The notes under the pieces were generated by a model. It did no database searches, had not been told where the DNA came from, and saw only the letters and a list, made by a program, of their open reading frames with translations. From Oleomonas cavernae (lineage in GTDB: Bacteria > Pseudomonadota > Alphaproteobacteria > Zavarziniales > Zavarziniaceae), in the NCBI RefSeq assembly GCF_003590945.1, contig NZ_QYUK01000011.1, forward strand, positions 1,206,001 through 1,270,000: a stretch of DNA of 64,000 bases, read 5' to 3'. Numbering within the stretch: the first letter of the stretch is position 1; each line of letters starts with the position of its first letter. Position numbers and translations under genes: made by a program. Of this stretch, positions 27,900 to 57,820 are shown piece after piece.

Positions 27900-30800
27900 A
27901 TGGAAGACAAGATTCGCCAGCCGGGCAGGACCTCGGTTGCCAAGGGATTGCGGGTGATTCTGTCATCCACGGCCCTCGTATCGACACTGGCTGTCGCCTC
28001 CCTGGCAACCTCGCAGGATGCGGTCCCCGTATCGAGCGATCAGTTCGGTTACGGCACCAAGGCCGTCGCCGAGGCCAACTTCAAGTTCGACGTCTTCGGC
28101 GGCGGGGACGAGAACGGCGGCATGTTCGGCGGTGCGCCGAGCTTCACCATTCCCCTGGGCGACCAGATGGGCCTGCAGGTCGACGGTATCGCCGGCTTTG
28201 CGGCCGACGAGGCCGGCTTTGCCGGCGGTGCCGCGCAACTGTTCTACCGCGATCCGCAGACCATGGCGCTGGGCCTGGCCGGCGGCGGCTACTATGTCGA
28301 AGGCGACGCGCAATATGCGGTGGCCGCGATCGGCCAATTCTATCTCGATAATGTGACGCTGGAGGCCCTGGCCGGCTACCAGGACGGCGATATCGTCGAC
28401 GGTTCCTTCTACGGCCGCCTCGGCGCCTCGATCTACCTCAACCCGAACCTGCGCATCGGCGCCGGCGTCGGCTATGCCGAGGAAACCGAATTCGCCGGCG
28501 ACATCCAGATCGAAGCGCTGCTGGCCGATGTCCCGGGCATGGCCCTGTTCGCGACCGGCACCTACGACAGCGAAGGCGTGATGGGCTTCGGCGGCGTCCG
28601 CTTCTTCCTGAACAGCGGTACCTCGCTGATCTCCAACGATCGCACCAAGCAGGCCGGCGTACCGACCCTGATCGAGATGCAGCGTAACCTGACGCTGCCG
28701 AACTTCTTCACCGGCTACCCGACCGGCTTCGGCCTGCGCCAGATCAGCCTGCGCGGCGGCGGCGAACTGGGTGATGACGACGACAACCCCACCTGCACCC
28801 AGGCGCCTTGCCCGCCGGGCCCGCCGCCGCCTCCGGGTCCGCCCCCTCCGCCGCCGCCTCCGGGCGCGGGCGGCAGCTCGGGCCTGATCGATCTGGTTCA
28901 GGACGTGGTCGGCGATCTGACCGGCGGCACGCCGCTCAGCCCGGTCGGCGATCTGGTCGACACCCTGGTCGATCCCGTTACCGGTGCCCTGTCGCCGCTG
29001 ACCGATCCGCTGAACGACGTCACCACGGTCGACAACCCCGCCACGCCGGTCGATGAGACCGCGCCGCTGGGCCCGCTGACCGACGTGGTCGACACCCTGG
29101 CCGGTGGCGACGGCGTTCTCGGGCCGGTGCTGGACGGTGTCCAGGACCTGGTCAGCCAGAATGCCGATAGCTCGAACGTCTCGGGCGGCCTGATCGACGA
29201 GGTCCAAGGTGTTGTCGGCAACCTGCTCGACGGCACCCCGGCGGCGCCGCTGGCCGACGGCATCGACACGCTGGTCGATCCGATTACCGGTGCCCTGGCC
29301 CCGCTGACCGGCCCGCTCAACGACGTCACCGACGTGCCCAGCAATGCCCCGCTGGCCGCGGTGACGGAGATCGTCGATGCGCTCGCCGGCGCCCCAGGCG
29401 GCGAACTCGACCCGACCACTGACAGCGTGCAGGACCTGCTGAGCCAGAACGCCGACAGTTCGACCGTCGACGCTGGTCTGATCGACGAGGTTCAGGGGAT
29501 TGTCGGCAACCTGCTCGACACCACCCCGCTGGCACCGCTGGCCGACGGGATCGACACCCTGGTCGACCCGGAGACGGGTGCGCTGGCCCCGTTGACCGGT
29601 CCGCTCAACGACGCGTCCGATATCGTGACCAATGCCCCCTTGGCGCCGTTGACCGAAACGGTCGATGCCCTGGCCGGTCCGGCCAATGGCACGCTCGACC
29701 CGACTCTCGACGCGGTCAGCGACCTCTTGTCCTTCGACGCCTTGCCGATCCCCGGTGCCTCGGGTGGCGACAATCCGTTGGCGGGCATTCCGGTCCTGGG
29801 CGACCTGCTGGGTGGCCTGCCGATCCCGGGTGCGACCGGTGGCGACAACCCGCTGGCCAGCATTCCGGTGGTGGGCGACCTGCTGGGCGGCCTGCCGATC
29901 CCTGGTGCCTCGGGCGGCGACAGCCCGCTGGCCGGCATCCCGGTCCTGGGTGATCTCCTCGGCGGTCTGCCGATCCCGGGCGCCGGCGGTGGTACGCCGA
30001 TCACGGGTGGCCTGATCGATACCGTGCAGGGTACGGTCGACAATCTGCTGGTCGGCACCCCTCTTGAGCCGGTAGCCGACGGCGTGACCACCCTGGTCGA
30101 TCCGGCCACGGGTGCCCTGGCGCCGCTGACCGACCCCATCAACGATGCAACCGATGTCCTGACCGGGCCCGGCGCACCGTTGACCGAGCTGGTCGATACT
30201 CTGGTCGGTGCGCAGAACGGCGCGCTCGATCCGGTGCTCGACGGTGTCCAGGATCTGCTGAGCGGTGAGATCCCGTCGATCCCGGGCCTGCCCGGTGCCG
30301 GCGGTGGCGACAACCCGCTGGCCGGTATTCCGGTGGTGGGTGACCTGCTGGGCGGCTTGCCGCTGCCGGGTGCCGGTGGCGGCGGCGACAGCCCGCTGGC
30401 TGGCATCCCGGTTCTGGGTGACCTCCTGGGTGGCTTGCCGATCCCGGGGACCGGTGGCGGCGTGCCGATCACCGGCGGCCTGATCGATACGGTTCAGGGC
30501 ACGGTCGACAACCTTCTGGTCGCCACCCCGCTCGAGCCGGTGGCCGACGGGGTGACCACCCTGGTCGATCCGGCCACGGGTGCGCTGGCCCCGCTGACCG
30601 ATCCGATCAACGATGCGACCGACGTCCTGACCGGACCCGGTGCGCCGCTGACCGAATTGGCCGACAGCCTGGTCGGCGCACAGAACGGCGCGCTCGATCC
30701 GGTGCTCGATGCGGTCCAGGACCTGCTGAGCGGTGACATCCCCTCGCTCCCGGGCCTGCCCGGCGCTGGCGGGGACAGCCCCTTGGCTGGCATCCCGGTT

Positions 30801-30944
30801 CTGGGTGATCTGCTCGGCGGTGGTCTTCCCGGCCTGCCGGGCGCTGGTGGCGACAATCCCCTGGCCGGCATCCCGGTCCTGGGCGATTTGATCGGCACCT
30901 TGACCGGCAGCCTCGATCCTTCGGCCAACCCGCTGGGGCACTGA
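27900..30944 (+). CDS. Large repetitive surface protein with N-terminal barrel-like domain
   Basis: A 1014-residue protein I cannot assign to a family. A signal peptide (KGLRVILSSTALVSTLAVAS) is followed by residues 50-290 with alternating polar/hydrophobic strands and aromatic residues, like a small outer-membrane barrel (GLGAGVGYAEETEF-like segments, ending GVRFFLN). A poly-proline linker (about 305-320) joins a C-terminal region of tandem modules. Five modules begin GLIDxVQxxV and contain TLVDPxTGALAPLTxPLND; they start near residues 326, 429, 525, 702 and 859. Between them lie repeats of NPLAGIPVLGDLLGGLPIPG. The layout (barrel first, passenger last) suggests an adhesin-like or surface-anchored fibre, but that is inference. 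Confidence 0.75.
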   Translation: MEDKIRQPGRTSVAKGLRVILSSTALVSTLAVASLATSQDAVPVSSDQFGYGTKAVAEANFKFDVFGGGDENGGMFGGAPSFTIPLGDQMGLQVDGIAGFAADEAGFAGGAAQLFYRDPQTMALGLAGGGYYVEGDAQYAVAAIGQFYLDNVTLEALAGYQDGDIVDGSFYGRLGASIYLNPNLRIGAGVGYAEETEFAGDIQIEALLADVPGMALFATGTYDSEGVMGFGGVRFFLNSGTSLISNDRTKQAGVPTLIEMQRNLTLPNFFTGYPTGFGLRQISLRGGGELGDDDDNPTCTQAPCPPGPPPPPGPPPPPPPPGAGGSSGLIDLVQDVVGDLTGGTPLSPVGDLVDTLVDPVTGALSPLTDPLNDVTTVDNPATPVDETAPLGPLTDVVDTLAGGDGVLGPVLDGVQDLVSQNADSSNVSGGLIDEVQGVVGNLLDGTPAAPLADGIDTLVDPITGALAPLTGPLNDVTDVPSNAPLAAVTEIVDALAGAPGGELDPTTDSVQDLLSQNADSSTVDAGLIDEVQGIVGNLLDTTPLAPLADGIDTLVDPETGALAPLTGPLNDASDIVTNAPLAPLTETVDALAGPANGTLDPTLDAVSDLLSFDALPIPGASGGDNPLAGIPVLGDLLGGLPIPGATGGDNPLASIPVVGDLLGGLPIPGASGGDSPLAGIPVLGDLLGGLPIPGAGGGTPITGGLIDTVQGTVDNLLVGTPLEPVADGVTTLVDPATGALAPLTDPINDATDVLTGPGAPLTELVDTLVGAQNGALDPVLDGVQDLLSGEIPSIPGLPGAGGGDNPLAGIPVVGDLLGGLPLPGAGGGGDSPLAGIPVLGDLLGGLPIPGTGGGVPITGGLIDTVQGTVDNLLVATPLEPVADGVTTLVDPATGALAPLTDPINDATDVLTGPGAPLTELADSLVGAQNGALDPVLDAVQDLLSGDIPSLPGLPGAGGDSPLAGIPVLGDLLGGGLPGLPGAGGDNPLAGIPVLGDLIGTLTGSLDPSANPLGH

Positions 30945-46283: not shown

Positions 46284-48137
46284 TCACCGCCGGCGGCGAA
46301 GCAGGTACATCGGCATGCGGCCGAACTGTTTCGCCGTCGGGATGGTGCCGACATATTCCGAACTGAAATCGCGCGAGGTCAGCGCCAGTTCGGCGGCGAA
46401 GGCTTCCGAGACGAAGACCTTGCCGGTGAAGGCGATCGGCTCGATGCGGGCGCAACGGGTTACCTGGGCGCCGAAGAAGGTCTCCTCCTCCAGCACATTG
46501 TCCCAGCCCGAATAGATCGGCCCCATGTGACCGCCCACGCGCAGGGCCAGGCCCTCGGGCAGGCCGTGCTTGGCCAGGTCGATCCTGCCCATCTCGTCCT
46601 GGAAATCCAGGGCCAGGGCCGCGGCCGAGGGGGCGTCGCGCATCACGGTGTGGATGGCATCGCCCCAGGTATTCTTGAACAGCACGCCATTGTCGTGGCG
46701 CTTGGTCGCCCGGGCCAGCTTGCCCATCACTTCCCGGAAGAAGGCGGGGATGGTCACGTCGTTCAGCTTCGAGAAACCCTTGACGTCGCAGAACAGCAGG
46801 GCGCGGAGCACGCGCGACGGCACCCGCGCGCCAGGCTCCACCACCGACTGGGCCGGCACGGCGGCGACGCCGTTGGCCGCCGGGGCGCAGGCCTCGGCGG
46901 TCAGCATCTGGGCGGCCCCGGCGACCTCGCCCGGCCAGATGACGTCGCAGTCGCGCCCCAGTTCGTCGCGCCAGAAGGCGACATCGGCCGCCGTACCCGC
47001 CGGCCCGGCCGATGCGACGCCGTCCCACACCGCCAGTTGCACCGCCGGCCCGCCCAGCATGTCGGCCCGCATCACGGCAAGGCCCATGGCATAGCGCGCG
47101 GCATAACCGAAAATATCGTCGTCGCCCAGGAACGGGTCGAAGGTCGCCAGGCTCACCCGGATGCGCGGGTGATGGATCAGCCGTTCGAAGCGTTCGACCC
47201 AGGCGGGGCCGGAATCGGCGACCGAGGTACGGACGAAGTCCTCGTAGGCGAAGGGCAGGACCACATGCACCTCGCCGCCGGCCTCGATGATCGCCTCGGC
47301 GAACAGGATGTCGGCGCCCGAGGCCAGCGAGCCGTAACCGGCCTTGACCTTGTAGCGCGCCACCGCGTCGCGGATACCCGCGGCAACCGCTGCCTCCATG
47401 GCGGCGGGGAAGCGGCCGGGCCGGCCCCAGGGGGTCAGGCGATGGCCGGTGAAATGGGCGACCGCCGGGGGCGTCATCGGCGCCAGGATCGCCTTGTCCA
47501 GGCCGCGCGCGCCGATCACCAGGCGCAATTGCCGCCTGGTCGAGGCGATCTCGGTCAGGTCCAGGTCGGGCAGGGTCATGGCCTGGGCCACGGCGTCGCC
47601 GGCGGTTGCGGTATCGCCCAGGATCAGCGCCGCCTCGGCGGTGGTTGCCAGTTCCCAGAAGTTGAGCGGCCGGGCAGGGGCATCGGCCGCGGGCTTCAGG
47701 TGGCGCTGGGCCAGTTCGGCAAAGCCCTTGGCATTCACCTCGTCGCCGGCCAGCAGGTACAAGGTCGCCGCATTGATCGCCGGGTAGTAGTCGGGATAGC
47801 GGACATAGGCCGCGCGGTAGGAGGAGGCCGCCTCGTGCAGCTTCAGCCGCCGCTCCTCGCCGGTCAGGGCCAGGGCCTCGTCCTTCAGGATGCGGCCGAT
47901 CAGGGTGGCATAGTCGAGTCCCAAGTCCGGGTTGAGGCCGTATTCCTCGTAGCGGCGGTGGGCCAGTTCGCTGGCCCCGGCGCGGGCGAGGCACAGCACC
48001 GCCTCGAAGGCGAGGCGGGAGTCGAAGCCATGCTCATCGATCGCGGTGCGGGCGAGATCGAAGGCCTCGAACAGTTCGCCCCGCTTGCGGGCGGCGCGCA
48101 CGGCACGCAGGACATCGTCGACAGCCTCGGCAGACAT
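46284..48137 (-). CDS. TPR/TRAF-binding-like protein with adenylate/guanylate cyclase-homology domain
   Basis: A 617-residue cytoplasmic protein. The N-terminal half (to about 400) is helical and repeat-like (LFEAFDLARTAIDEHGFDSR, AFEAVLCLARAGASELAHRR), like the TPR/TRAF-binding regions fused to cyclases. The C-terminal 200 residues are a class III cyclase homology domain: metal aspartates in ALLFCDVKGFSKLND and NTWGDAIHTVM are kept. The transition-state asparagine is replaced by threonine in GAQVTRCARIEP. Nucleotide cyclase activity is thus uncertain. It lies 21 bases downstream of a Crp-type gene on the same strand. Start at ATG 48137 fits better than TTG 48152. Confidence 0.82.
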   Translation of the reverse strand: MSAEAVDDVLRAVRAARKRGELFEAFDLARTAIDEHGFDSRLAFEAVLCLARAGASELAHRRYEEYGLNPDLGLDYATLIGRILKDEALALTGEERRLKLHEAASSYRAAYVRYPDYYPAINAATLYLLAGDEVNAKGFAELAQRHLKPAADAPARPLNFWELATTAEAALILGDTATAGDAVAQAMTLPDLDLTEIASTRRQLRLVIGARGLDKAILAPMTPPAVAHFTGHRLTPWGRPGRFPAAMEAAVAAGIRDAVARYKVKAGYGSLASGADILFAEAIIEAGGEVHVVLPFAYEDFVRTSVADSGPAWVERFERLIHHPRIRVSLATFDPFLGDDDIFGYAARYAMGLAVMRADMLGGPAVQLAVWDGVASAGPAGTAADVAFWRDELGRDCDVIWPGEVAGAAQMLTAEACAPAANGVAAVPAQSVVEPGARVPSRVLRALLFCDVKGFSKLNDVTIPAFFREVMGKLARATKRHDNGVLFKNTWGDAIHTVMRDAPSAAALALDFQDEMGRIDLAKHGLPEGLALRVGGHMGPIYSGWDNVLEEETFFGAQVTRCARIEPIAFTGKVFVSEAFAAELALTSRDFSSEYVGTIPTAKQFGRMPMYLLRRRR

Positions 48138-48158
48138 TCGTTCAGGTCCCAAATCCTC

Positions 48159-48866
48159 TCAGGCGAGATCGACGATCGCCCGCATATCATTGGGCGCGTT
48201 CAAGACGATCGTGCCCTTGTCCATGCTGATCAGGCCGGCATCGCGCCAGGTCGCGAACTGCTTGTTCACGGCCTCGCGGGATGTGCCCACCAGCGCCCCC
48301 AACTCGCGCTGGGACAATTTCAGGCGCAGGCGCAGCGCGCCGCTTTCGAGTTTTTCGGCCGAGCTTTCCGCCAGGCTGACCAGCCATTTGGCCAGCCGCG
48401 CCTCGAGCGGCAGGAAGGCGCGATCCTCGATCACGCTGCTGGTCCAGCGCACGCGGGCGCACAGGATTTCCAGCAGGGAGAAGCACAGGTCGGGATTGGC
48501 GTGCATATAGGGCACGAACTGCCGCCGCGGGATATGGAGCAGGGTGGTCGGCCCCATGGCGGCGGCATCGGCCGAACGCGCCTTGCCGTCGATCAGGGCG
48601 ATTTCGCCGAACAGGTCGCCGCCTTCCAGCAGGTTCAAGGTGATCTCCCGCCCCTCGGCATCGCCGGCGAAGATGCGCACCTGGCCTTCGAGAATGCCAT
48701 AGAGGCCGTCGCCGTCGTCGCCCTTGGCGAAAATCAGCTCGTCGTCGCCGAAGCGGCGGATCGTGGAAAATCCGATCAGATCGTCCAGCACCTTTTCGGG
48801 TACATCACGCAACAGGAAGTGACGCGCCAAAAGCGTGCGTCGCTTCGCTCTTTCTTGCTCGTTCAT
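48159..48866 (-). CDS. Crp/Fnr family transcriptional regulator
   Basis: A 235-residue regulator. The N-terminal cyclic-nucleotide domain keeps the phosphate-binding cassette LFGEIALIDGKARSADAAA, typical of cAMP binders. The C-terminal helix-turn-helix is LSQRELGALVGTSREAVNKQ. No FNR-type cysteines are visible, so it is not an oxygen sensor. The start at 48866 (MNEQERAKRR) gives a normal length; a longer start at 48929 adds residues that do not fit. The gene is directly upstream of a cyclase-homology gene, suggesting a local cyclic-nucleotide circuit. Confidence 0.9.
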   Translation of the reverse strand: MNEQERAKRRTLLARHFLLRDVPEKVLDDLIGFSTIRRFGDDELIFAKGDDGDGLYGILEGQVRIFAGDAEGREITLNLLEGGDLFGEIALIDGKARSADAAAMGPTTLLHIPRRQFVPYMHANPDLCFSLLEILCARVRWTSSVIEDRAFLPLEARLAKWLVSLAESSAEKLESGALRLRLKLSQRELGALVGTSREAVNKQFATWRDAGLISMDKGTIVLNAPNDMRAIVDLA

Positions 48867-48970
48867 GCCCCCGTCCTTGGCGCAATGCCATCCGATGGGC
48901 ATATTGAGGCCTGTCGCGCCCAGGGCCAAGCCCGAAGCACCTTAAGGTTGGGCATAGCTCCCAGCCGCTG

Positions 48971-49909
48971 ATGAGGTTGTTCATGTCCGCCACCGCCGCC
49001 GATCCCGAACTCAGCCCCCTGGAAGCTATGGTCGCCCAGGCCAAGATCGAACTGGAGAAGGCGCCCGATGCCGCCGTCGCGGCGCGGCTGCTGGACGGCA
49101 GCCGCCGGCTGGTAGATGCCCTGATGTCGAGGCGGCTGGCAACCGAGGCCGCCGCCGTGCTCGATGAGGTGTGGGATCTGCCGGGTCTGGCCGATTTCGG
49201 CATCGAATCGGCGATCCTGGGCTTCCTCTCGGTACGTGTGCTCCAAGCCTCCAACCGGCACGAGGAAGCAATCGACCGGGCGATTGCCGCCTCGGCCCGG
49301 ATCGCCGCGACCAAGGGCGACGGTCGTGGCCTGGGGGCGCCGCTGCAGGCCGATCTGGCGCAAGCCCGTGCCGCCTCCTACGAGACCCTGGGCAGGCGGG
49401 AAGAGGCGCGCGACGCACAGGGCGAGGCGGTTGCCCGCCGCGCCGGCCTGATCGGCCGCAACGACCTGCCGGATCAGCGGGCGGGCCTCGCTTCGGCCCG
49501 CAATGCCCTGGGTCGCCTGCACCTGAGCTTGGGCAATCCGGATGCCGCGGTGGCGGAACTGGAAACCTGCCTAGCCGAACTGCACGAGATCGCCCAGGCG
49601 ACCGACGGCAACCTGCCGCCCATGCTGTTCAACGTCCACGCCGCCGCCTCCAACCGGCTGGGCCGGGCGCTGGTCGTGTCCGGCAAACCCTACGAGGCGC
49701 ATCCCCATCTGGTGACCTCGGTCGAGGCCATGCGCAGCCTGGTCAACGAGACGCGGAACCTAGGCCTGGTCGAGGATTTCCTGACCGCCCTGGGCGACCT
49801 GGAAAAGGCCGAACGCGAGATGGGCAACGACCGCGTCGCCGCCAACCTCGCCGCCGAGGCGGTGCGCTGGCGCGACCATGTAAAGGCCCAGCAGCAAGCG
49901 GGGCGGTAG
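48971..49909 (+). CDS. Helical repeat (TPR-like) protein
   Basis: A 312-residue cytoplasmic protein made of helix pairs resembling TPR repeats (SNRHEEAIDRAIAASARIAA, AASYETLGRREEARDAQGEA, ASARNALGRLHLSLGNPDAA). No catalytic domain or signal peptide. ATG at 48971 or 48983 is equally possible. It is divergent from the Crp gene (104 bases apart) and may be co-regulated. Role unknown, probably protein-protein binding. Confidence 0.75.
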   Translation: MRLFMSATAADPELSPLEAMVAQAKIELEKAPDAAVAARLLDGSRRLVDALMSRRLATEAAAVLDEVWDLPGLADFGIESAILGFLSVRVLQASNRHEEAIDRAIAASARIAATKGDGRGLGAPLQADLAQARAASYETLGRREEARDAQGEAVARRAGLIGRNDLPDQRAGLASARNALGRLHLSLGNPDAAVAELETCLAELHEIAQATDGNLPPMLFNVHAAASNRLGRALVVSGKPYEAHPHLVTSVEAMRSLVNETRNLGLVEDFLTALGDLEKAEREMGNDRVAANLAAEAVRWRDHVKAQQQAGR

Positions 49910-49915
49910 ACCCCA

Positions 49916-50003
49916 CAGGTGTCATCCCGGCGAAGGCCGGGATCCATTCTGGGCCAGCACGCGATGTCGCAATGGATCCCGGCCTTCGCCGGGATGACAC
50001 CTG
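49916..50003. repeat. Large perfect inverted repeat
   Basis: Two 33-base arms (49916-49948 and 49971-50003) are perfectly complementary, with AGGTGTCATCCCGGCGAAGG at the left end. A 22-base spacer lies between them. This motif (CATCCCGGCGAAGGCCGGGA) is a widely dispersed palindrome in alphaproteobacteria. It separates the convergent genes and will also form a strong transcript hairpin. Confidence 0.9.
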
Positions 50004-50022: not shown

Positions 50023-52154
50023 TCACATCTTGCCTCCCATCGGCGGGGCCAGCTTCGGCGTCGGGCTGCTCTTGGCGATGTCGGGCAGGGGCACGCGCTC
50101 GATGTCCAGGTGCTCGGTCGAGGTGGCGCGGCGGCGGGCGTCGACGAAGCGGGCGAACAGGTTGCCGCCCTGGGCGAGCAGGGCCTGGGGCGAGCCGGTC
50201 GCGACAAAGCCGCCGTTCTCGATGCACACCACCTCGTCGGCCACGGCCGTGACGAAGTCCACGTCATGTTCCACCATGATGATGGTGACGTCGCGCGCCA
50301 GCTCCTTCAGCACCGAGACCAGGCGCGAGGTGGATTCCACATCGACGCCGGTGGATGGTTCGTCCAGCAGCAGGATCGCCGGGTTGAGGACCAGGGCGCG
50401 AGCCAAGGCCACCAGGCGGCGCTGGCCGCCCGACAGGGTGCCGGTGCCGGCCGCCTGGGTCACCGGGATCTCCAGTGGGTTGCCCTGGATCTTCACCAGG
50501 GCGTCCCACACGCCGACCCGGCGCAGGGCGGCGGTGATCTCGTCATCGGTGATGTCGGCCTTCACCAGCTCGAAATTCTTGCGCAGCGAGCCCAGCAGCA
50601 TCAGCGGAAACTGGGACAGGGTGACGACCTGGCGGCGCAGGGATTCGAGCGTATAGGCCGCGACCGGCTGGCCGCCGAGCATGACATCGCCGTTCTGCGG
50701 GTCGTAGAGCCGCACCAGCAGGCGCATGATCGAACTCTTGCCCGAGCCCGAGCCGCCGACGATGGCGGTGATGGCGTCGGCCCGGAACTTGTGGCTGACC
50801 CCGTTCAGGATGATCGGCGTCTTGGCCGGCGGGTAGCCGAAGATCACATTCTTCAGCTCGGCCGAGCGTTGCGTGATGGCGATATCCCGGGCAGCGGCGG
50901 CATCCTCGATTTCCGGCTTGGCGTCGATGATCTCGCCCACCGGGCGGATCATCGGCCAGTTCACCGACAGGCCGGTGAAGAACGTCACCAGTTCCTGGAT
51001 CGGCCCGACCACCAGCGGCACCATCAAGATCAGGCCCAGCAGGGCGCCGACCGGCGTCGAGGCATCGAAGGAGAAGGCGGCATAGATCAGGATGACCGTG
51101 GTCAGGATGGTCGACATCGAGCCCTGGAACTGCTGGGCCGCCTCGCGTCGCAGGGTCGCCCGCAGTTTCGCCCGCATGACCGAGGTCAGGCGCTCGGCGA
51201 TCGAGCGCGAGCGCTGGGCATGGGCACGCATCAACTGCACTTCCAGCGGCTGGGCGGTCGAATTGCCCAGCTCGTCGGCGAAGGCCGCCTCCTCGGCGCG
51301 GACCTGCTCGAAGGCGCGGCCGACCACGCCCGACAGCTTCCAGCCGATCAGCGGGATGATCACCACCAGGGCCAGCAGGACCCAGCGCATGAACGGCGGA
51401 ATGCCGGCGAAGGCGGCCAGGTTGTCGGCCAGGAAGACCCCGGCGGTCACCAGGCCGACGCCGCGGGTCAAGGGATAGGCCAGGATCTCGCGCAGGGTGA
51501 ACTGCGCGCCGGCCGAGAAATTGTTGATGATCTGGACCAGTTGCGGGCCGGTCACCTTGCCGTGGAAGATCGGCCCCAGCAGCAGCATGCGGTCGTGGAG
51601 CAGGCCGCGCAGGGTGACCAACATGCGTTCGTTCGACCAGGTGGTGATCAGCTTGCTGGCCATGGAGAGCAGGATCACCACCACCGCCAGCACGGCATAG
51701 AGCAGGGCCATCATGCGCGGGTCGACGATATTGCCGCCGGGCCCCGGCTTGCCTTCCAGGGCCGAGGTCAGCGACACCAGCACCTGTTGGGTATAGGGGG
51801 TGAGGCCGTTCACCAGGGCGCCGATGCCGACCGAGAGCAGGAACGGCAAGGGGCCGAGCGCGCCAGCATCAAGGCCCAGCGCACCAGCTTGCCAAAGTTC
51901 ATCGGCGTCGGCGGGAAGGGCAGGCCCGGAAAGCCCCCCATCGGCCCCTTCATGCCGCCGGCCGGCGGCATGCCCTTCATGGCACCCGGCGGCGGCATGG
52001 CCCCGGGCGGGGCACCTTTGGGCGCGCCGGCCAGGGGCAGGGGAATGCCCTGTGGACCCGGACCCGGGCCGGGCGTCGGCCCGCCCTTCAGGACGGCACC
52101 TGGCGGGATCTCGCCCTTGAGGGCTCCGGGCGGCGGATTGTCAATCGATGCCAT
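50023..52154 (-). CDS. ABC exporter (permease-ATPase fusion) with Pro/Gly-rich N-terminus, apparent frameshift
   Basis: A predicted 710-residue half-transporter. An N-terminal extension of about 90 residues is Pro/Gly/Met-rich (GAPPGAMPPPGAMKGMPP) and unlike standard exporters. A membrane domain of about six helices follows, then an ATPase: Walker A GGSGSGKSSIM, signature TLSGGQRRLVALA, Walker B ILLLDEPSTGVDVES and IMVEHDVDFV. One G missing at 51850-51853 joins the two frames. It overlaps the subtilase stop by 14 bases. No C39 peptidase domain is present, so the adjacent subtilase may do the processing. The cargo is unknown. Confidence 0.85.
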
Positions 52155-52917
52155 CGGCGCGCGCCTTCAGGATGGTTTTCAGTTCGAACTGACGCAATTC
52201 CGGCCAGCGCCCCAGGAACAGGCAGCACATGGCGCAGACCGTGGGGGTGGCAAAGCTGGTCCCGGTCTTCACCGTATAGCCGCCGCCCGGCGCCGGCACG
52301 GTCAACTCGTTGCCCAGGGCGGCGAATTCGATCAGGCCCTGGCCGATGAAATCGACCTCGTAGGACGAGGGCAGATCGTGATTGTCGACCGAGATCACAC
52401 TGGAGAATTCCGCCGGCAGGCCTTCGTCGGTGACCGGCACGTTGCGCTTGGCCGCGACCACCACCTGGTTGCGCTGATAGGCGCTTTCGCACAGCTTGTA
52501 GAGCGGCTCGCGCTGCGAGGCCGGGATGGCCAGGCTCATGTTCACCAGGCGCAGGCGCTGGGCCAGGATGTGGCGGAAGGCGACCAGCGAGGCGGTGGGA
52601 TCGCCCTTGTTGCGGGCGTCGAGCACGCGAATGTCGTGAATCCGGGCATTGGGCGCCATGCGCGCGATGATGCCGGCGACCGCGGTGCCGTGGCCGAAAG
52701 TGTCGTTGTTGATCCCCGTGCCCAGGGGCTGCACGGCAAGCTGGCCCACATCGCCTTCCACGGTCCATTGACTGACCACCCGGCCGGCCAGGTCGGGATG
52801 GGTGGCATCCACCCCTGAATCGATGACGGCAACCTCCACCGGCTCGAGCTCTCGGGTAGCCAGATCGCGGAAGTCGATCGCGGATGCTTCAAGAAGGAAC
52901 CGAGGCGGCATGTTCAT
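52141..52917 (-). CDS. S8 (subtilisin-like) serine peptidase, no signal peptide
   Basis: A 258-residue compact subtilase. The catalytic triad is complete: Asp in VAVIDSGVDATHPDLAG, His in DTFGHGTAVAGIIARM and Ser in TGTSFATPTVCAM. The oxyanion asparagine lies in VVAAKRNVPV. There is no signal peptide, no prodomain of the usual kind and no transmembrane segment, so it probably works in the cytoplasm. It lies between a GAF gene (6 bases upstream) and an ABC exporter gene (14-base overlap), which suggests it trims a peptide before export. Substrate unknown. Confidence 0.88.
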   Translation of the reverse strand: MNMPPRFLLEASAIDFRDLATRELEPVEVAVIDSGVDATHPDLAGRVVSQWTVEGDVGQLAVQPLGTGINNDTFGHGTAVAGIIARMAPNARIHDIRVLDARNKGDPTASLVAFRHILAQRLRLVNMSLAIPASQREPLYKLCESAYQRNQVVVAAKRNVPVTDEGLPAEFSSVISVDNHDLPSSYEVDFIGQGLIEFAALGNELTVPAPGGGYTVKTGTSFATPTVCAMCCLFLGRWPELRQFELKTILKARADGID

Positions 52918-52923
52918 GCGGCC

Positions 52924-53574
52924 TCAGGACGCGATGTCGACCATCTGCTCGAACAATTGGGCGAGGCGGGGCAGCCGGTCGGGCCGGGTCCGGGCCACCG
53001 TGCCCAGGGCGTTGAGGATGCGGGCTTCCTCGGGACCATAGCCGCCGGCGGTGGTGAGTTCGCCGCCGCGGTCGCCGGTCATGCTGCGCAGGCGGTTGTG
53101 CTGGTCCAGCATCAGGGCGGCGACGGTGGCGAAATTGCCATAGGCGCGGCCGTCGTCGGTGGTGAAGCGGTGGCCGCTCTTGAAGCGCACCGCCGTCAGC
53201 ACGCCGATCAGGGTGTCGCCCGAAACCATGGGGGCGGCGATGACCGCGCTGGGCTCGCCCTCGACGCCGGTCGCCTTGTTGGCATCGTCCACGGTCTTGA
53301 AGGTCGGCGCGCCGATCTGCACTTCGTGGGTCAGGGCGGCGAGGCCGGTCAGGCCGGCGCCGATCGGCACGCGCTGGCCGATCAGCGAGCCGGGGCCGTT
53401 GGCGACCATCACGAAGCGCAGGTCATTGGCATCGTGGTCATAGGCCAGGACCGAGCCTTCGGCGGCATCGACCGTGCGAATCGCCGTCTCGAGCAGCAGG
53501 CGCAGCACGCCTTCCTCGCGCGTGGACGGCGCGATGCCCAGATAGTGGCTCAACAGCGAACGGTCGGTGGTCAT
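52924..53574 (-). CDS. GAF-domain protein
   Basis: A 216-residue protein dominated by one GAF domain: LLETAIRTVDAAEGSVLAYD, NGPGSLIGQRVPIGAGLTGL and APMVSGDTLIGVLTAVRFKS. GAF domains bind small ligands such as cyclic nucleotides or nitrogen compounds. A short C-terminal helical tail (TVARTRPDRLPRLAQLFEQM) follows. It is first in the GAF-subtilase-ABC operon and could be its sensor, but has no output domain (no HTH, kinase or cyclase). Ligand unknown. Confidence 0.85.
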   Translation of the reverse strand: MTTDRSLLSHYLGIAPSTREEGVLRLLLETAIRTVDAAEGSVLAYDHDANDLRFVMVANGPGSLIGQRVPIGAGLTGLAALTHEVQIGAPTFKTVDDANKATGVEGEPSAVIAAPMVSGDTLIGVLTAVRFKSGHRFTTDDGRAYGNFATVAALMLDQHNRLRSMTGDRGGELTTAGGYGPEEARILNALGTVARTRPDRLPRLAQLFEQMVDIAS

Positions 53575-53728: not shown

Positions 53729-53992
53729 ATGGCGACGAGCGAATCGGGCGGCGGCACCACAATCCGGCGCGGGGTGAAAATCGATCCTGTGGACGAAGGC
53801 GCCATCGACATGGCCCGCCTGGGGCTCCTGCTGTCGCGCCCGCGCCCGATCGACGGCGTCGAACTCCAGGACTGGTACAGCGACTATGTCCAATGCCCCT
53901 GGTGCGGCCATGTCGGCCGGACCATGGGCCTGAACACCGACTTCTATGTCGACGTCGTCTGCGGCAGTTGCGGGGCGTATTTCAGGGCGTAG
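53729..53992 (+). CDS. Small zinc-ribbon-like protein (CPWCGH family), second copy
   Basis: An 87-residue paralogue of the protein at 27047-27292. The pattern QCPWCGHVGRTMGLNTDFYV, then VVCGSCGAYFRA is shared nearly residue by residue. The first 45 residues (TTIRRGVKIDPVDEGAIDMA) are similar in pattern but diverged. ATG at 53729 follows GGGAGGCCCCCGGGAC. It lies divergently from the GAF operon with about 150 bases between. Function unknown. Confidence 0.75.
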   Translation: MATSESGGGTTIRRGVKIDPVDEGAIDMARLGLLLSRPRPIDGVELQDWYSDYVQCPWCGHVGRTMGLNTDFYVDVVCGSCGAYFRA

Positions 53993-54179: not shown

Positions 54180-54563
54180 TTCCGTATGTCCGGGATTTGA
54201 GGCTTCAGAGCATTACATTGGCGCCTGAACACCGCCACCCCTACCGTCATGGCCGGGCGAAGTCCCGGCCATCCACGTCGCCACGCAGCCTATGCCTTCG
54301 ACGGACTTGACTCAGCCGCCCGGACGACCGCGGGCTCGTGTGGCATCGAGACCGGCGCCGGTGCGCTTTTGGATGAAACCGCGCTCGAATTCTCCAAGAG
54401 CGCCGATGATTCCGAGCCCCTACAGCCATTCCTGAAAAGCGTTGACCTACGTCGCCCCAACGCGTCGCCTCTCGGAGACAACCAAGCGACGAATCTCCTC
54501 GACAGAATCAACGAATAGTATAGAATCTCCTGGTTTGGCAATGCGTCTTTTTTGGGGGTGGCT
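54180..54563. other. Intergenic region with a short palindrome
   Basis: A 384-base region. It contains ATGGCCGGG (54249-54257) / CCCGGCCAT (54264-54272), a dispersed palindrome related to the repeats elsewhere. Some open frames exist but none with a convincing start or family. The last 100 bases are more AT-rich and should hold the promoter of the CARDB gene; GGGGGTGGCT precedes its start. Confidence 0.5.
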
Positions 54564-57500
54564 ATGCCCGACCTTGACGTGCAGAACGCCGGCGACTCCT
54601 ATCCGCCGACCCTCAGCGCCTCCAGCATCGTCGCGGGCGGCAGCGTCACGCTCACCTACCGTCTCAGCAACTTCGGCCTCGACAGCGCACCGTCCTCGGT
54701 GACCGGCATCTACCGGTCGAGCGACAGCACCATTTCAACCAGCGACACACGGGTCGGCACCGACTCGAACGGGTCACTCGCCGCCAATACCGGCCGGACC
54801 GAGACTTTCACCGTCGACACCACCGGTTGGGCTGCCGGCAGCTATTACATCGGCGCGGTGGCGGACTACGCCAACGCCATCTCCGAGTCCAACGAGAGCA
54901 ACAACCCTCCAGCGGCGTCTGGCTGACCGTGACGGCGCCGCCTGTGCAGCTTCCCGACCTTGACGTGCAGAACGCCGGCGACTCCTATCCGCCGACCCTC
55001 AGCGCCTCCAGCGTCGTCGCGGGCGGCAGCGTCACGCTCACCTATCGTCTCAGCAACTTCGGCACGGGCAGCGCCCCGTCCTCGGTGACTGGCATCTACC
55101 GGTCGACCGACGGCACGATATCCACTGGCGACACACGGATCGGCACCGACTCGAACGGGTCACTCGCCGCCAATAGCGGCAGCACCGAGACGTTCACGAT
55201 CGACACTTCGGGCTGGACACCGGGGAGTTACTACATCGGCGCGGTGGCGGACTACAACAACGCCATCTCCGAGTCCAACGAGGGCAACAACCCCTCCAGC
55301 GGCGTCTGGCTGACCGTGACGGCGCCGCCTGTGCAGCTTCCCGACCTTGACGTACAGAACGCCGGCGACTCCTATCCGCCGACCCTCAGCGCCTCCAGCA
55401 TCGTCGCGGGCGGCAGCGTCACGCTCACCTACCGTCTCAGCAATTTCGGCACGGGCAGCGCCCCGTCCTCGGTGACCGGCATCTACCGGTCGAGCGACAG
55501 CACCATTTCGACCAGCGACACACGGGTCGGCACCGACTCGAACGGGTCACTCGCCGCCGATACCGGCCGGACCGAGACGTTCACCGTCGACACCACCGGT
55601 TGGGCTGCCGGCAGCTATTACATCGGCGCGGTGGCGGACTACAACAACGCCATCTCCGAGTCCAACGAGAGCAACAACCCCTCCAGCGGCGTCTGGCTGA
55701 CCGTGACGGCGCCGCCTGTGCAGCTTCCCGACCTTGACGTGCAGAACGCCGGCGACTCCTATCCGCCGACCCTCAGCGCCTCCAGCGTCGTCGCGGGCGG
55801 CAGCGTCACGCTCACCTACCGTCTCAGCAACTTCGGCACGGGCAGCGCCCCGTCCTCGGTGACAGGCATCTATCGGTCGACTGACGGCGCCATATCCACT
55901 GGCGACACGCGGATCGGCACCGACTCGAACGCGTCGCTCGCCGCCAATACCGGCCGGACCGAGACTTTCACCGTCGACACCACCGGGTGGGCTGCCGGCA
56001 GCTACTACATCGGCGCAGTGGCGGACTACGCCAACGCCATCTCCGAGTCCAACGAGAGCAACAACCCCTCCAGCGGCGTCTGGCTGACCGTAACGGCGCC
56101 GCCTGTGCAGCTTCCCGACCTTGACGTACAGAACGCCGGCGACTCCTATCCGCCGACCCTCAGCGCCTCCAGCGTCGTCGCGGGCGGCGGCGTCACGCTC
56201 ACCTACCGTCTCAGCAACTTCGGCACGGGCAGCGCCCCGTCCTCGGTGACAGGCATCTACCGGTCGAGCGACAGCACCATTTCGACCAGCGACACACGGG
56301 TCGGCACCGACTCGAACGGGTCACTCGCCGCCAATACCGGCCGGACCGAGACGTTCACGATCGACACCACCGGGTGGGCTGCCGGCAGCTATTACATCGG
56401 CGCGGTGGCGGACTACAACAAGGCCATCTCCGAGTCCAACGAGAGCAACAATCCCTCCAGTGGCGTCCGGCTGACCGTAACGGCGGCGCCTACGACGCCC
56501 GAGGTGACGGTTCTGGGCAATGCGGTGAGCATTGCCGATGGGGACACGACGCCGGTCGCCACCGATCACACCAACTTCGGCAGCGTCGAGGTCGGCAGCG
56601 CGGGCGTGACGCGGACCTTCACCGTGCGCAATGATGGCGGCGGCACGCTCAACCTGTCGAACCTGACGCTTCCCACAGGCTTCACCCTCGTCAACGGTCT
56701 GGTGACCTCGCTGGCCCCCGGCGCCACGGACACGTTCCGGGTGCGGATGGACGCAGCGACAGCCGGGACCAAGACCGGACAGATCACGTTCGCCAGCAAC
56801 GATCCCAACGAAAGCGCGTTCAACTTCGTCGTCACCGGGACGGTGACCGGAATGACGACGGACGCGGGCAACACGTTGGCGACGGCGACCGACTTGACAC
56901 TGGGCAATACGGTCTTGCAATCGGTCGGCAGCAGTCCGGACTCCAACGACTTCTTCCACTTCACGGCGGCCAGCAGCGGCCACGTTACGGCGAATCTGAC
57001 CGGACTGTCGGCAGACCTCGATATTCGGGCGCTGAACAGCAGCGGGACTCAGATCGTAGCGGGCGAACTGGAGGGCAATTCCAGCGAGTCGATCTCGTTC
57101 AATGTTACCGCCGGGCAGGTCTACTACTTGCACGTCGATCCCTTCGGCGTGGCGTCGTCCAACTACAGACTGGCTACGACGTTCATCAGTGGAGCGGCGT
57201 CTGCTACTGAAATGCTTGCGGAAGCTCGCAGTCACCTCGGGGAAGACTATTACTGGAGGTACCGTCTGAATGCGGATGGTTCTAGAACTTATACGACGTT
57301 CAATTCAACAACTATAAATGATGCCGACTTCTCAGGGCCTTGGGATTGCGCGGAGTTTGTCAGTTATTGCATCTATCAAGAGACTGGAAATAGGATCGGC
57401 CTCGCAGACCCAAGTAATCCCAGCTCATTTGAGTTCTCGTCCGCTGGATGGAAGTATGCCATTGCGAATGAACTTGGTGTTACCCAAGTCACTCTGCAGA

Positions 57501-57820
57501 CCGCTTTGGAAACTGTTGGCGCCGTAATCTGGATTGAAGAGCACGTTATGATGTCGGTAGGCAACGGTTATCAGATCATCGAAGCGAGTGCGCGGAAGTC
57601 TAGCGGAAAGTACTTTAGCGACGATCGCACGGTGTATTATGACCCATTGAACAAGTCGGCCACCCCAGGAGTTGTTTGGGATACAAATGATACAGCGTCC
57701 GTTTCTGATGATACTCCGATGGGAGTCGACATTGGGGATGTAACGTACCATGATTATACTGCATCGGAATTGGAGCATTTGCATGCAACCGCAGGTGTCG
57801 TTGATGCATTCTTGATTTGA
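54564..57820 (+). CDS. CARDB-repeat protein with ASH, PPC and NlpC/P60-like domains, apparent frameshift
   Basis: A predicted 1085-residue surface or secreted protein. Five CARDB modules (129 residues each) carry LDVQNAGDSYPPTLSASS, VTLTYRLSNFG and GSYYIGAVADYNNAISESN. Next come an ASH-like Ig domain (NFGSVEVGSAGVTRTFTVRN), a bacterial pre-peptidase C-terminal (PPC) domain (DSNDFFHFTAASSGHVTANL) and a catalytic-type region with GPWDCAEFVSYCIYQETG and HVMMSVGNGYQIIEASA, like NlpC/P60 or CHAP peptidoglycan hydrolases (Cys-His). One C missing from 54905-54907 breaks module 1. No signal peptide is seen. From about 57200 the DNA is clearly more AT-rich, suggesting a foreign 3' end. Confidence 0.8.
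54567..56500 (+). repeat. Five tandem coding repeats (CARDB modules)
   Basis: Repeat starts (CCCGACCTTGACG) are at 54567, 54953, 55340, 55727 and 56114. The last four are spaced by 387 bases exactly; the first by 386, showing a single lost base in copy 1. Copies are nearly identical in DNA, implying recent duplication or ongoing recombination. Confidence 0.95.

What the first reader, a model, noticed from the sequence alone, without database searches (positions are those of the whole stretch)
50023..53574. GAF - cytoplasmic subtilase - ABC exporter operon of unknown purpose
Three genes are packed with a 6-base gap and a 14-base overlap: a GAF-only protein, a signal-less S8 peptidase with full triad, and an ABC exporter with a Pro/Gly/Met-rich N-terminal extension. 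Subtilases next to exporters are known in some peptide (cyanobactin-like) pathways, but no precursor gene, cyclodehydratase or C39 domain is seen here and the GAF protein has no output domain. It may be a sensing, trimming and export unit; I know of no named system with this order.
Basis: partly seen in the sequence, partly recalled or inferred. Interest (0 to 1): 0.6.

Follow-up and report, generated by a model that had tools for sequence, protein, structure and literature searches.

The report
GAF-gated cytosolic protease and exporter module
Three neighbouring bacterial genes (a small sensor protein, a protease that stays inside the cell and a membrane exporter) are inherited together across one bacterial family, Zavarziniaceae, and recur beside a second-messenger enzyme in one distant sulfate reducer, so they probably form an undescribed unit that cuts and exports a peptide on command; its cargo is unknown.

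Summary
One base is missing relative to relatives whose frame is intact, so the Pro/Gly/Met-rich N-terminus and the exporter lie in different frames here. An assembly indel is likely.

The trio (GAF, S8, ABC) is not accidental. It stays together in the Zavarziniaceae genomes held (G000-G006), while both flanks vary. The S8 was not found elsewhere in 385 alphaproteobacterial genomes. One distant copy exists, in a Desulfovibrio MAG. There a RyR/TPR-S/nucleotide-cyclase gene is followed directly by GAF (50% identical), S8 (50%), a lipoprotein prolyl oligopeptidase and an ABC exporter. That exporter's membrane domain belongs to the same subfamily (107 bits against 23.5 for the best solved exporter) and carries a 175-residue Pro/Gly-rich tail.

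Best reading (inferred): a QhpE/QhpF-like protease-exporter pair whose prodomain-less cytosolic subtilase is controlled by the co-encoded GAF protein, probably in response to a nucleotide second messenger, and which processes an unknown peptide for export. It is not QHNDH biogenesis: QhpC is absent, with positive controls. No precursor gene is conserved nearby.

New variant of a known kind; moderate interest. Substrate and signal are untested.

The parts
52924..53574 (-). GAF-domain protein, 216 aa, no output domain, conserved C-terminal helical tail, no Cys; first gene of the unit
   Evidence: PF13185 39.9 bits; 70-92% identical in six Zavarziniaceae, 50% in Desulfovibrio MAG G387; profile's best solved matches are cyclic-nucleotide GAFs 1ykd, 5w10, 2zmf
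52141..52917 (-). S8 subtilase, 258 aa, no signal peptide, no prodomain; Asp33/His76/Ser221 triad and Asn159 intact
   Evidence: PF00082 73.7 bits; alignment A1; AlphaFold model pLDDT 74 matches subtilisin BPN'
51856..52154 (-). Pro/Gly/Met-rich N-terminal extension of the exporter (about 90 aa) plus the start of TM1, read from ATG 52154, overlapping the S8 stop by 14 bases
   Evidence: 63-77% Pro+Gly+Met+Ala in five Zavarzinia genomes, 175 aa and 66% in L024
51850..51855 (-). single-base deletion (frameshift) relative to relatives, within GGCCCC; separates the extension from the exporter frame
   Evidence: DNA alignment with L020-L026
50023..51849 (-). ABC exporter core (membrane domain plus ATPase domain); conserved C-tail RRRATSTxHLDIERVPLP
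   Evidence: PF00005 96.9 bits, PF00664 weak; NBD motifs; membrane domain 107 bits to the L024 exporter, 23.5 bits to the best PDB exporter
48971..49909 (+). TPR protein, convergent with the exporter; adjacent also in G001, G002 and G006 (38.6% identical there), absent from the L020 locus
48159..48929 (-). Crp/Fnr-type regulator next to the cyclase
   Evidence: PF00027 and PF13545
46284..48152 (-). TPR-S + class III nucleotide cyclase, 622 aa; its Desulfovibrio homologue (33% over full length) lies directly upstream of GAF. Linkage in Zavarzinia is loose: other contigs in G004 and G005, not found in G006
   Evidence: PF20308 and PF00211; blastp

Best explanation
This is a conserved, signal-controlled protease-exporter unit. 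A prodomain-less subtilase stays in the cytoplasm as a complex with, or under the control of, the GAF protein encoded just before it. When the GAF domain binds its ligand (most likely a nucleotide second messenger such as that made by the TPR-S cyclase), the subtilase cuts an unknown peptide or protein substrate. The dedicated ABC exporter, whose disordered Pro/Gly/Met-rich cytosolic N-tail takes the place of a C39 peptidase domain as docking or capture region, moves the product across the inner membrane, as QhpE/QhpF do for QhpC. Shown: the three genes form one co-inherited, operon-like unit under purifying selection; the active-site residues and NBD motifs are intact; the protease lacks a signal peptide; the same exporter subfamily recurs with the same GAF and S8 in a MAG of a second phylum, where a cyclase sits at the head of the operon. 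Inferred: GAF control of the protease, the ligand, the peptide substrate, the export direction and the role of the N-tail.
For: S8 in all 7 Zavarziniaceae genomes held; trio linked wherever the contig extends, with conserved gap and overlap, while both flanks vary. Purifying selection: dN/dS 0.07-0.27 among Zavarzinia species for all three genes. Desulfovibrio MAG G387: GAF (50%), S8 (50%) and a TMD-subfamily exporter with a Pro/Gly-rich tail; contigs C233 and C382 join through a 124-bp end overlap with 1 mismatch, giving the order cyclase-GAF-S8-POP-ABC. The TMD subfamily is found in only 1 of 395 genomes of that phylum, the same one that has S8 and GAF. Specific TMD kinship: 107 bits against 23.5 bits for the best solved exporter. 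GAF profile matches cNMP-binding GAFs first. S8 triad intact, no signal. Precedent: QhpE trims QhpC in the cytoplasm before export through the ABC transporter QhpF (PMC7876137).
Against: No precursor or substrate gene is conserved beside the unit. The NKFDE signature of cNMP GAFs is incomplete: F-x3-D is present, NK absent. The matches to cNMP GAFs are modest (per-domain E about 1e-5 at best), and solved GAFs are biased towards phosphodiesterases. In Zavarzinia the cyclase is on other contigs in two species and was not found in G006. PDB matches do not separate peptide exporters from drug or lipid exporters. The Desulfovibrio evidence rests on one MAG.
Confidence: 0.42

Rival explanations
1. 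Proteolytic activation of the exporter itself: the GAF-controlled subtilase cuts the exporter's own disordered cytosolic N-tail, switching transport of a small molecule or lipid on or off. No separate peptide cargo exists.
For: No precursor gene is conserved nearby. The tail is low-complexity, variable in length and located just before TM1, so it should be cytosolic and accessible to the protease. It is present on exporters in both phyla, with a 14-base translational overlap to S8 in Zavarzinia.
Against: The tail is short and atypical in the G006 copy (about 30-35 aa), and no conserved cleavage motif was seen. No direct evidence of cleavage.
Confidence: 0.2
2. Second-messenger defence or stress module: the RyR/TPR-S cyclase senses a threat and makes a nucleotide signal, the GAF protein passes it to the subtilase, and the subtilase acts as a toxic effector; the exporter is accessory.
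For: TPR-S and RyR with a cyclase directly upstream of GAF-S8 in G387. NTP-dependent conflict systems use cNMP cyclases, GAF domains and peptidases, including one class with S8 (PMC7159879). Patchy distribution across phyla.
Against: Present in every Zavarziniaceae genome held, under purifying selection, unlike variable defence islands. PADLOC gives only generic S8 and ABC matches. A dedicated exporter is not expected of an abortive effector.
Confidence: 0.17
3. A diverged QHNDH maturation pair (QhpE/QhpF) that lost its operon, still processing a cross-linked protein.
For: S8 matches NF049966 QhpE at 87.1 bits and the QhpE-then-QhpF logic is the same.
Against: The score is far below the curated cut-off of 165, and mycosin scores equally well. 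QhpC (PF08992) is absent from all Zavarziniaceae held while the same search finds it in G033, G056 and G084. The S8 match about 3 kb from qhpC in G056 is only 33 bits.
Confidence: 0.05
4. Housekeeping peptide turnover: S8 degrades peptides and the exporter disposes of fragments or toxic compounds, with GAF as a redox or metabolite sensor.
For: Generic domains; the closest solved relatives of the exporter are multidrug exporters.
Against: In the samples searched, confined to one family plus one distant genome, which is unexpected for housekeeping; conserved specific TMD.
Confidence: 0.12

Closest known systems
QhpE/QhpF of the quinohemoprotein amine dehydrogenase (qhp) operon
   Same: Signal-less cytosolic subtilase that trims a peptide before export through an ABC transporter encoded in the same operon (PMC7876137)
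   Different: No qhpC in Zavarziniaceae; S8 scores 87 against a cut-off of 165; here a GAF gene precedes the protease, and the exporter has a Pro/Gly/Met-rich tail
RiPP leader proteases with exporters (cyanobactin PatA/PatG, LanP/LanT, NHLP/C39 peptide exporters)
   Same: Subtilase and/or ABC exporter near each other; the S8 model also matches lanthipeptide protease 4zoq at lower rank
   Different: PatA/G 20.5 bits against a cut-off of 421; no C39, no modifying enzyme seen, no precursor gene conserved
NTP-dependent conflict systems with cNMP cyclases, GAF and peptidases (PMC7159879)
   Same: Shared domain vocabulary: TPR/cyclase, GAF, S8; cyclase directly upstream in G387
   Different: No MoxR, vWA, EAD or NucA components seen; a dedicated exporter; conserved family-wide rather than variable; no specific PADLOC match
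IetAS and other subtilase-containing defence systems (PADLOC)
   Same: S8 domain
   Different: Only weak or generic matches (IetS 19.9 bits; 'subtilase' 67 bits); no AAA ATPase partner

Membership tests
QHNDH (qhp) maturation operon | qhpC gamma-subunit gene (PF08992) in the genome | tested here: not met
   0 matches in G000-G006; same search positive in G033, G056, G084
QHNDH (qhp) maturation operon | protease reaches the QhpE model cut-off | tested here: not met
   87.1 bits against 165
QHNDH (qhp) maturation operon | cytosolic subtilase encoded next to an ABC exporter | tested here: met
C39 bacteriocin / peptidase-containing exporters | N-terminal C39 peptidase domain on the exporter | tested here: not met
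   Pfam scan of exporter and extension; NHLP and bacteriocin models far below cut-off
RiPP cluster with subtilase leader protease | precursor peptide gene conserved beside the protease | tested here: not met
   small-ORF conservation scan across seven loci found no conserved candidate beside the trio: the conserved small ORFs overlap or run antisense to larger genes; a precursor elsewhere in the genome was not tested
Subtilase (S8) active enzyme | Asp-His-Ser triad and oxyanion Asn | tested here: met
   D33, H76, S221, N159 invariant in 8 orthologues; subtilisin fold; activity itself not testable here
Cyclic-nucleotide-binding GAF | NK(X)nFX3DE signature | tested here: inconclusive
   F-x3-D kept, NK absent; best solved matches are cNMP GAFs; GAF model too poor to use (pLDDT 49.5)
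Cyclase-GAF-S8-ABC operon as one system | cyclase linked to the trio | tested here: inconclusive
   adjacent in G387, about 2-2.5 kb past the exporter in G000, G001, G002, on other contigs in G004 and G005, not found in G006
Known anti-phage defence system | match to a system-specific PADLOC model with its partners | tested here: not met
   only generic S8 and ABC matches

The most novel reading that the evidence does not exclude
A cyclic-nucleotide-gated cytosolic subtilase: the nucleotide made by a TPR-S (RyR) cyclase binds a stand-alone GAF protein that switches on a prodomain-less subtilase, which matures a peptide (or the exporter's own disordered tail) for export. This would be a second-messenger-controlled proteolysis-and-export pathway not described before.
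Probability: 0.2. Interest if true: 0.75.

Novelty: new variant of a known kind. Interest (0 to 1): 0.45.

Why it matters
Cytosolic subtilases that feed a dedicated exporter are known mainly from QHNDH maturation and RiPP pathways. A version with a stand-alone GAF protein and, in one lineage, a second-messenger cyclase would be a genetically simple case of signal-gated intracellular proteolysis coupled to export. It occurs in cultured Zavarzinia species (Z. aquatilis, Z. marina), where deletion and peptidomics should be feasible.

Tried and rejected
Chance adjacency: rejected by linkage across the family and recurrence in a second phylum. QHNDH maturation: rejected for lack of QhpC, with positive controls. 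Hidden precursor peptide beside the unit: only ORFs antisense to or overlapping larger genes are conserved. Plasmid carriage: no match for GAF, exporter membrane domain or cyclase in 72,556 plasmids, and only generic S8 at 36% or less. Viral carriage: no relative of S8 in IMG/VR. PADLOC: only generic hits. GAF structure: model unusable, so no fold search was run. G431 S8 copy: lacks its N-terminal part, joined to a CHASE2-like fragment, no GAF match in that genome; treated as a remnant. Weaker S8 hits (83 bits or less in the alphaproteobacterial sample, about 95 bits elsewhere) in larger proteins were treated as generic subtilases. An earlier QhpC search in the own genome alone was uninformative because no control rang. 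Laying the whole genome in the script box was not available. I took part of the cyclase to be a SLOG-like domain from memory; Pfam gave no match, so this is not claimed.

Full report
What is there. On the minus strand the window carries, in order, a GAF-only protein (52924-53574, 216 aa), a signal-less S8 subtilase (52141-52917, 258 aa) and an ABC exporter (50023 to about 52154). One thing was missed. The ORF that starts at 52154 with the Pro/Gly/Met-rich segment ends at 51810 in a different frame from the exporter, which is open only from TTG 51849. Alignment with relatives shows one base missing at about 51850-51855; L020, L021, L023 and L025 read through in one frame. The exporter part is under the same constraint as in the relatives (dN/dS 0.22-0.25). 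A neighbouring repeat gene shows a typical C-run contraction. I therefore think the frameshift is an assembly indel, but this cannot be settled without reads.

Is it a unit? All seven Zavarziniaceae genomes held encode the S8 (66-86% identical outside the window), and wherever the contig extends the trio is present in the same order, with a 10-12 base GAF-S8 gap and, in the Zavarzinia loci with both starts mapped, about a 14-base S8-ABC overlap. Genes on both sides change between species: L023 has the TPR, Crp and cyclase genes downstream, L020 and L021 have other genes there, and upstream most species have a repeat protein that lies elsewhere in this window. dN/dS between Zavarzinia species is 0.07-0.27 for all three genes. 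In 385 alphaproteobacterial genomes no other S8 comes near this subfamily (83 bits or less against 450-520), and a broader sample of 398 Pseudomonadota agrees.

A distant copy. A MAG labelled Desulfovibrio sp. (G387; L024, L044) encodes an S8 of 50% identity, a GAF protein of 50% identity (E = 3e-59) and, downstream, an ABC exporter with a 175-residue Pro/Gly-rich N-terminus. The two contigs overlap at their ends by 124 bases with one mismatch. This joins them in the order cyclase (RyR + TPR-S + class III cyclase, 842 aa), GAF, S8, a prolyl oligopeptidase with a lipoprotein-like signal, ABC. The exporter's membrane domain is specifically related to the Zavarzinia one: 107 bits, against 23.5 bits for the best of all solved exporters. 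In 395 genomes of that phylum the membrane-domain subfamily occurs only in this MAG. GAF, S8 and exporter therefore travel together across phyla. Caution: this is one MAG, and its taxonomic label was not verified; the distribution of the membrane-domain subfamily in alphaproteobacteria was not searched. A second S8 copy (G431) is truncated and lacks a GAF partner.

Parts. The S8 has an intact triad (Asp33, His76, Ser221) and oxyanion Asn159, all invariant in eight orthologues, and neither prodomain nor signal. Its model matches subtilisin. The GAF profile's best solved matches are cyclic-nucleotide GAFs (adenylate cyclase GAF 1ykd, PDE 5w10, PDE10A 2zmf), but the NKFDE signature is incomplete and the GAF model was too poor to use. 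The exporter has complete NBD motifs and no C39 domain. The N-terminal extension is 63-77% Pro+Gly+Met+Ala in Zavarzinia. From the known topology of such exporters it should lie in the cytoplasm, next to TM1. In G006 it is much shorter.

The cyclase link. In this window a TPR-S cyclase (46284-48152) with a Crp-type regulator lies 1.9 kb beyond the exporter's 3' end, past the convergent TPR gene. The arrangement is the same in G001 and G002. In G004 and G005 the cyclase is on a different contig, in G006 it was not found, and related cyclases occur in other alphaproteobacteria without the S8. The link in Zavarzinia is thus loose; the direct adjacency in G387 is what makes it interesting.

Mechanism. 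The closest precedent is QhpE/QhpF, where a cytosolic subtilase trims QhpC before ABC export (PMC7876137). I infer the same logic here, with GAF control added: ligand binding to GAF permits S8 to cut a substrate, and the exporter removes the product. Two rivals remain serious: the exporter's own tail is the S8 substrate, or the module is a second-messenger stress/defence device of the type surveyed in PMC7159879. Membership in the qhp operon was tested and failed, as was membership in C39 exporters and known defence systems. A conserved precursor gene beside the unit was sought and not found.

Verdict. A real, conserved and, as far as my limited literature searches showed, undescribed protease-exporter unit: a new variant of a known kind. 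The substrate, the signal and the GAF-S8 coupling are inferences that simple biochemistry could test.

Noticed in passing
window 54552-57820: Tandem-repeat gene (CARDB-like by eye) is frameshifted: the repeat at 54894 reads CAACCCTCC where sister copies at 55280, 55667 and 56054 read CAACCCCTCC; probably an assembly indel.
   Followed up: partly
L025:11118-14264 (-), L020:4281-7187 (+); window homologue 27900-30944 (+): A 970-1050 aa protein with a signal-like N-terminus, a barrel-like N-terminal region and roughly 110-aa Leu/Gly/Asn-rich tandem repeats lies just upstream of GAF on the same strand in several Zavarzinia genomes, but about 22 kb away in this window.
   Followed up: partly
L044:3348-5876 (+): An 842 aa bacterial protein combining RyR (PF02026), TPR-S (PF20308) and a class III nucleotide cyclase, in a MAG labelled Desulfovibrio.
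   Followed up: partly
L045:8727-9606 (+): In genome G431 (same phylum as G387) a CHASE2-like fragment is joined to an S8 gene lacking its N-terminal part; looks like a recombination remnant.
   Followed up: no
window 49920-50003: Inverted repeat (GTCATCCCGGCGAAGGCCGGGATCCATT ... CCCGGCCTTCGCCGGGATGACA) between the convergent TPR and exporter genes, probably a dispersed repeat or terminator.
   Followed up: no
window 53729-53992 (+): Small gene encoding an 87 aa protein with a CPWC...CGSC motif, divergent from GAF; 49% identical copy at the same place in L025, not seen in the other loci.
   Followed up: partly
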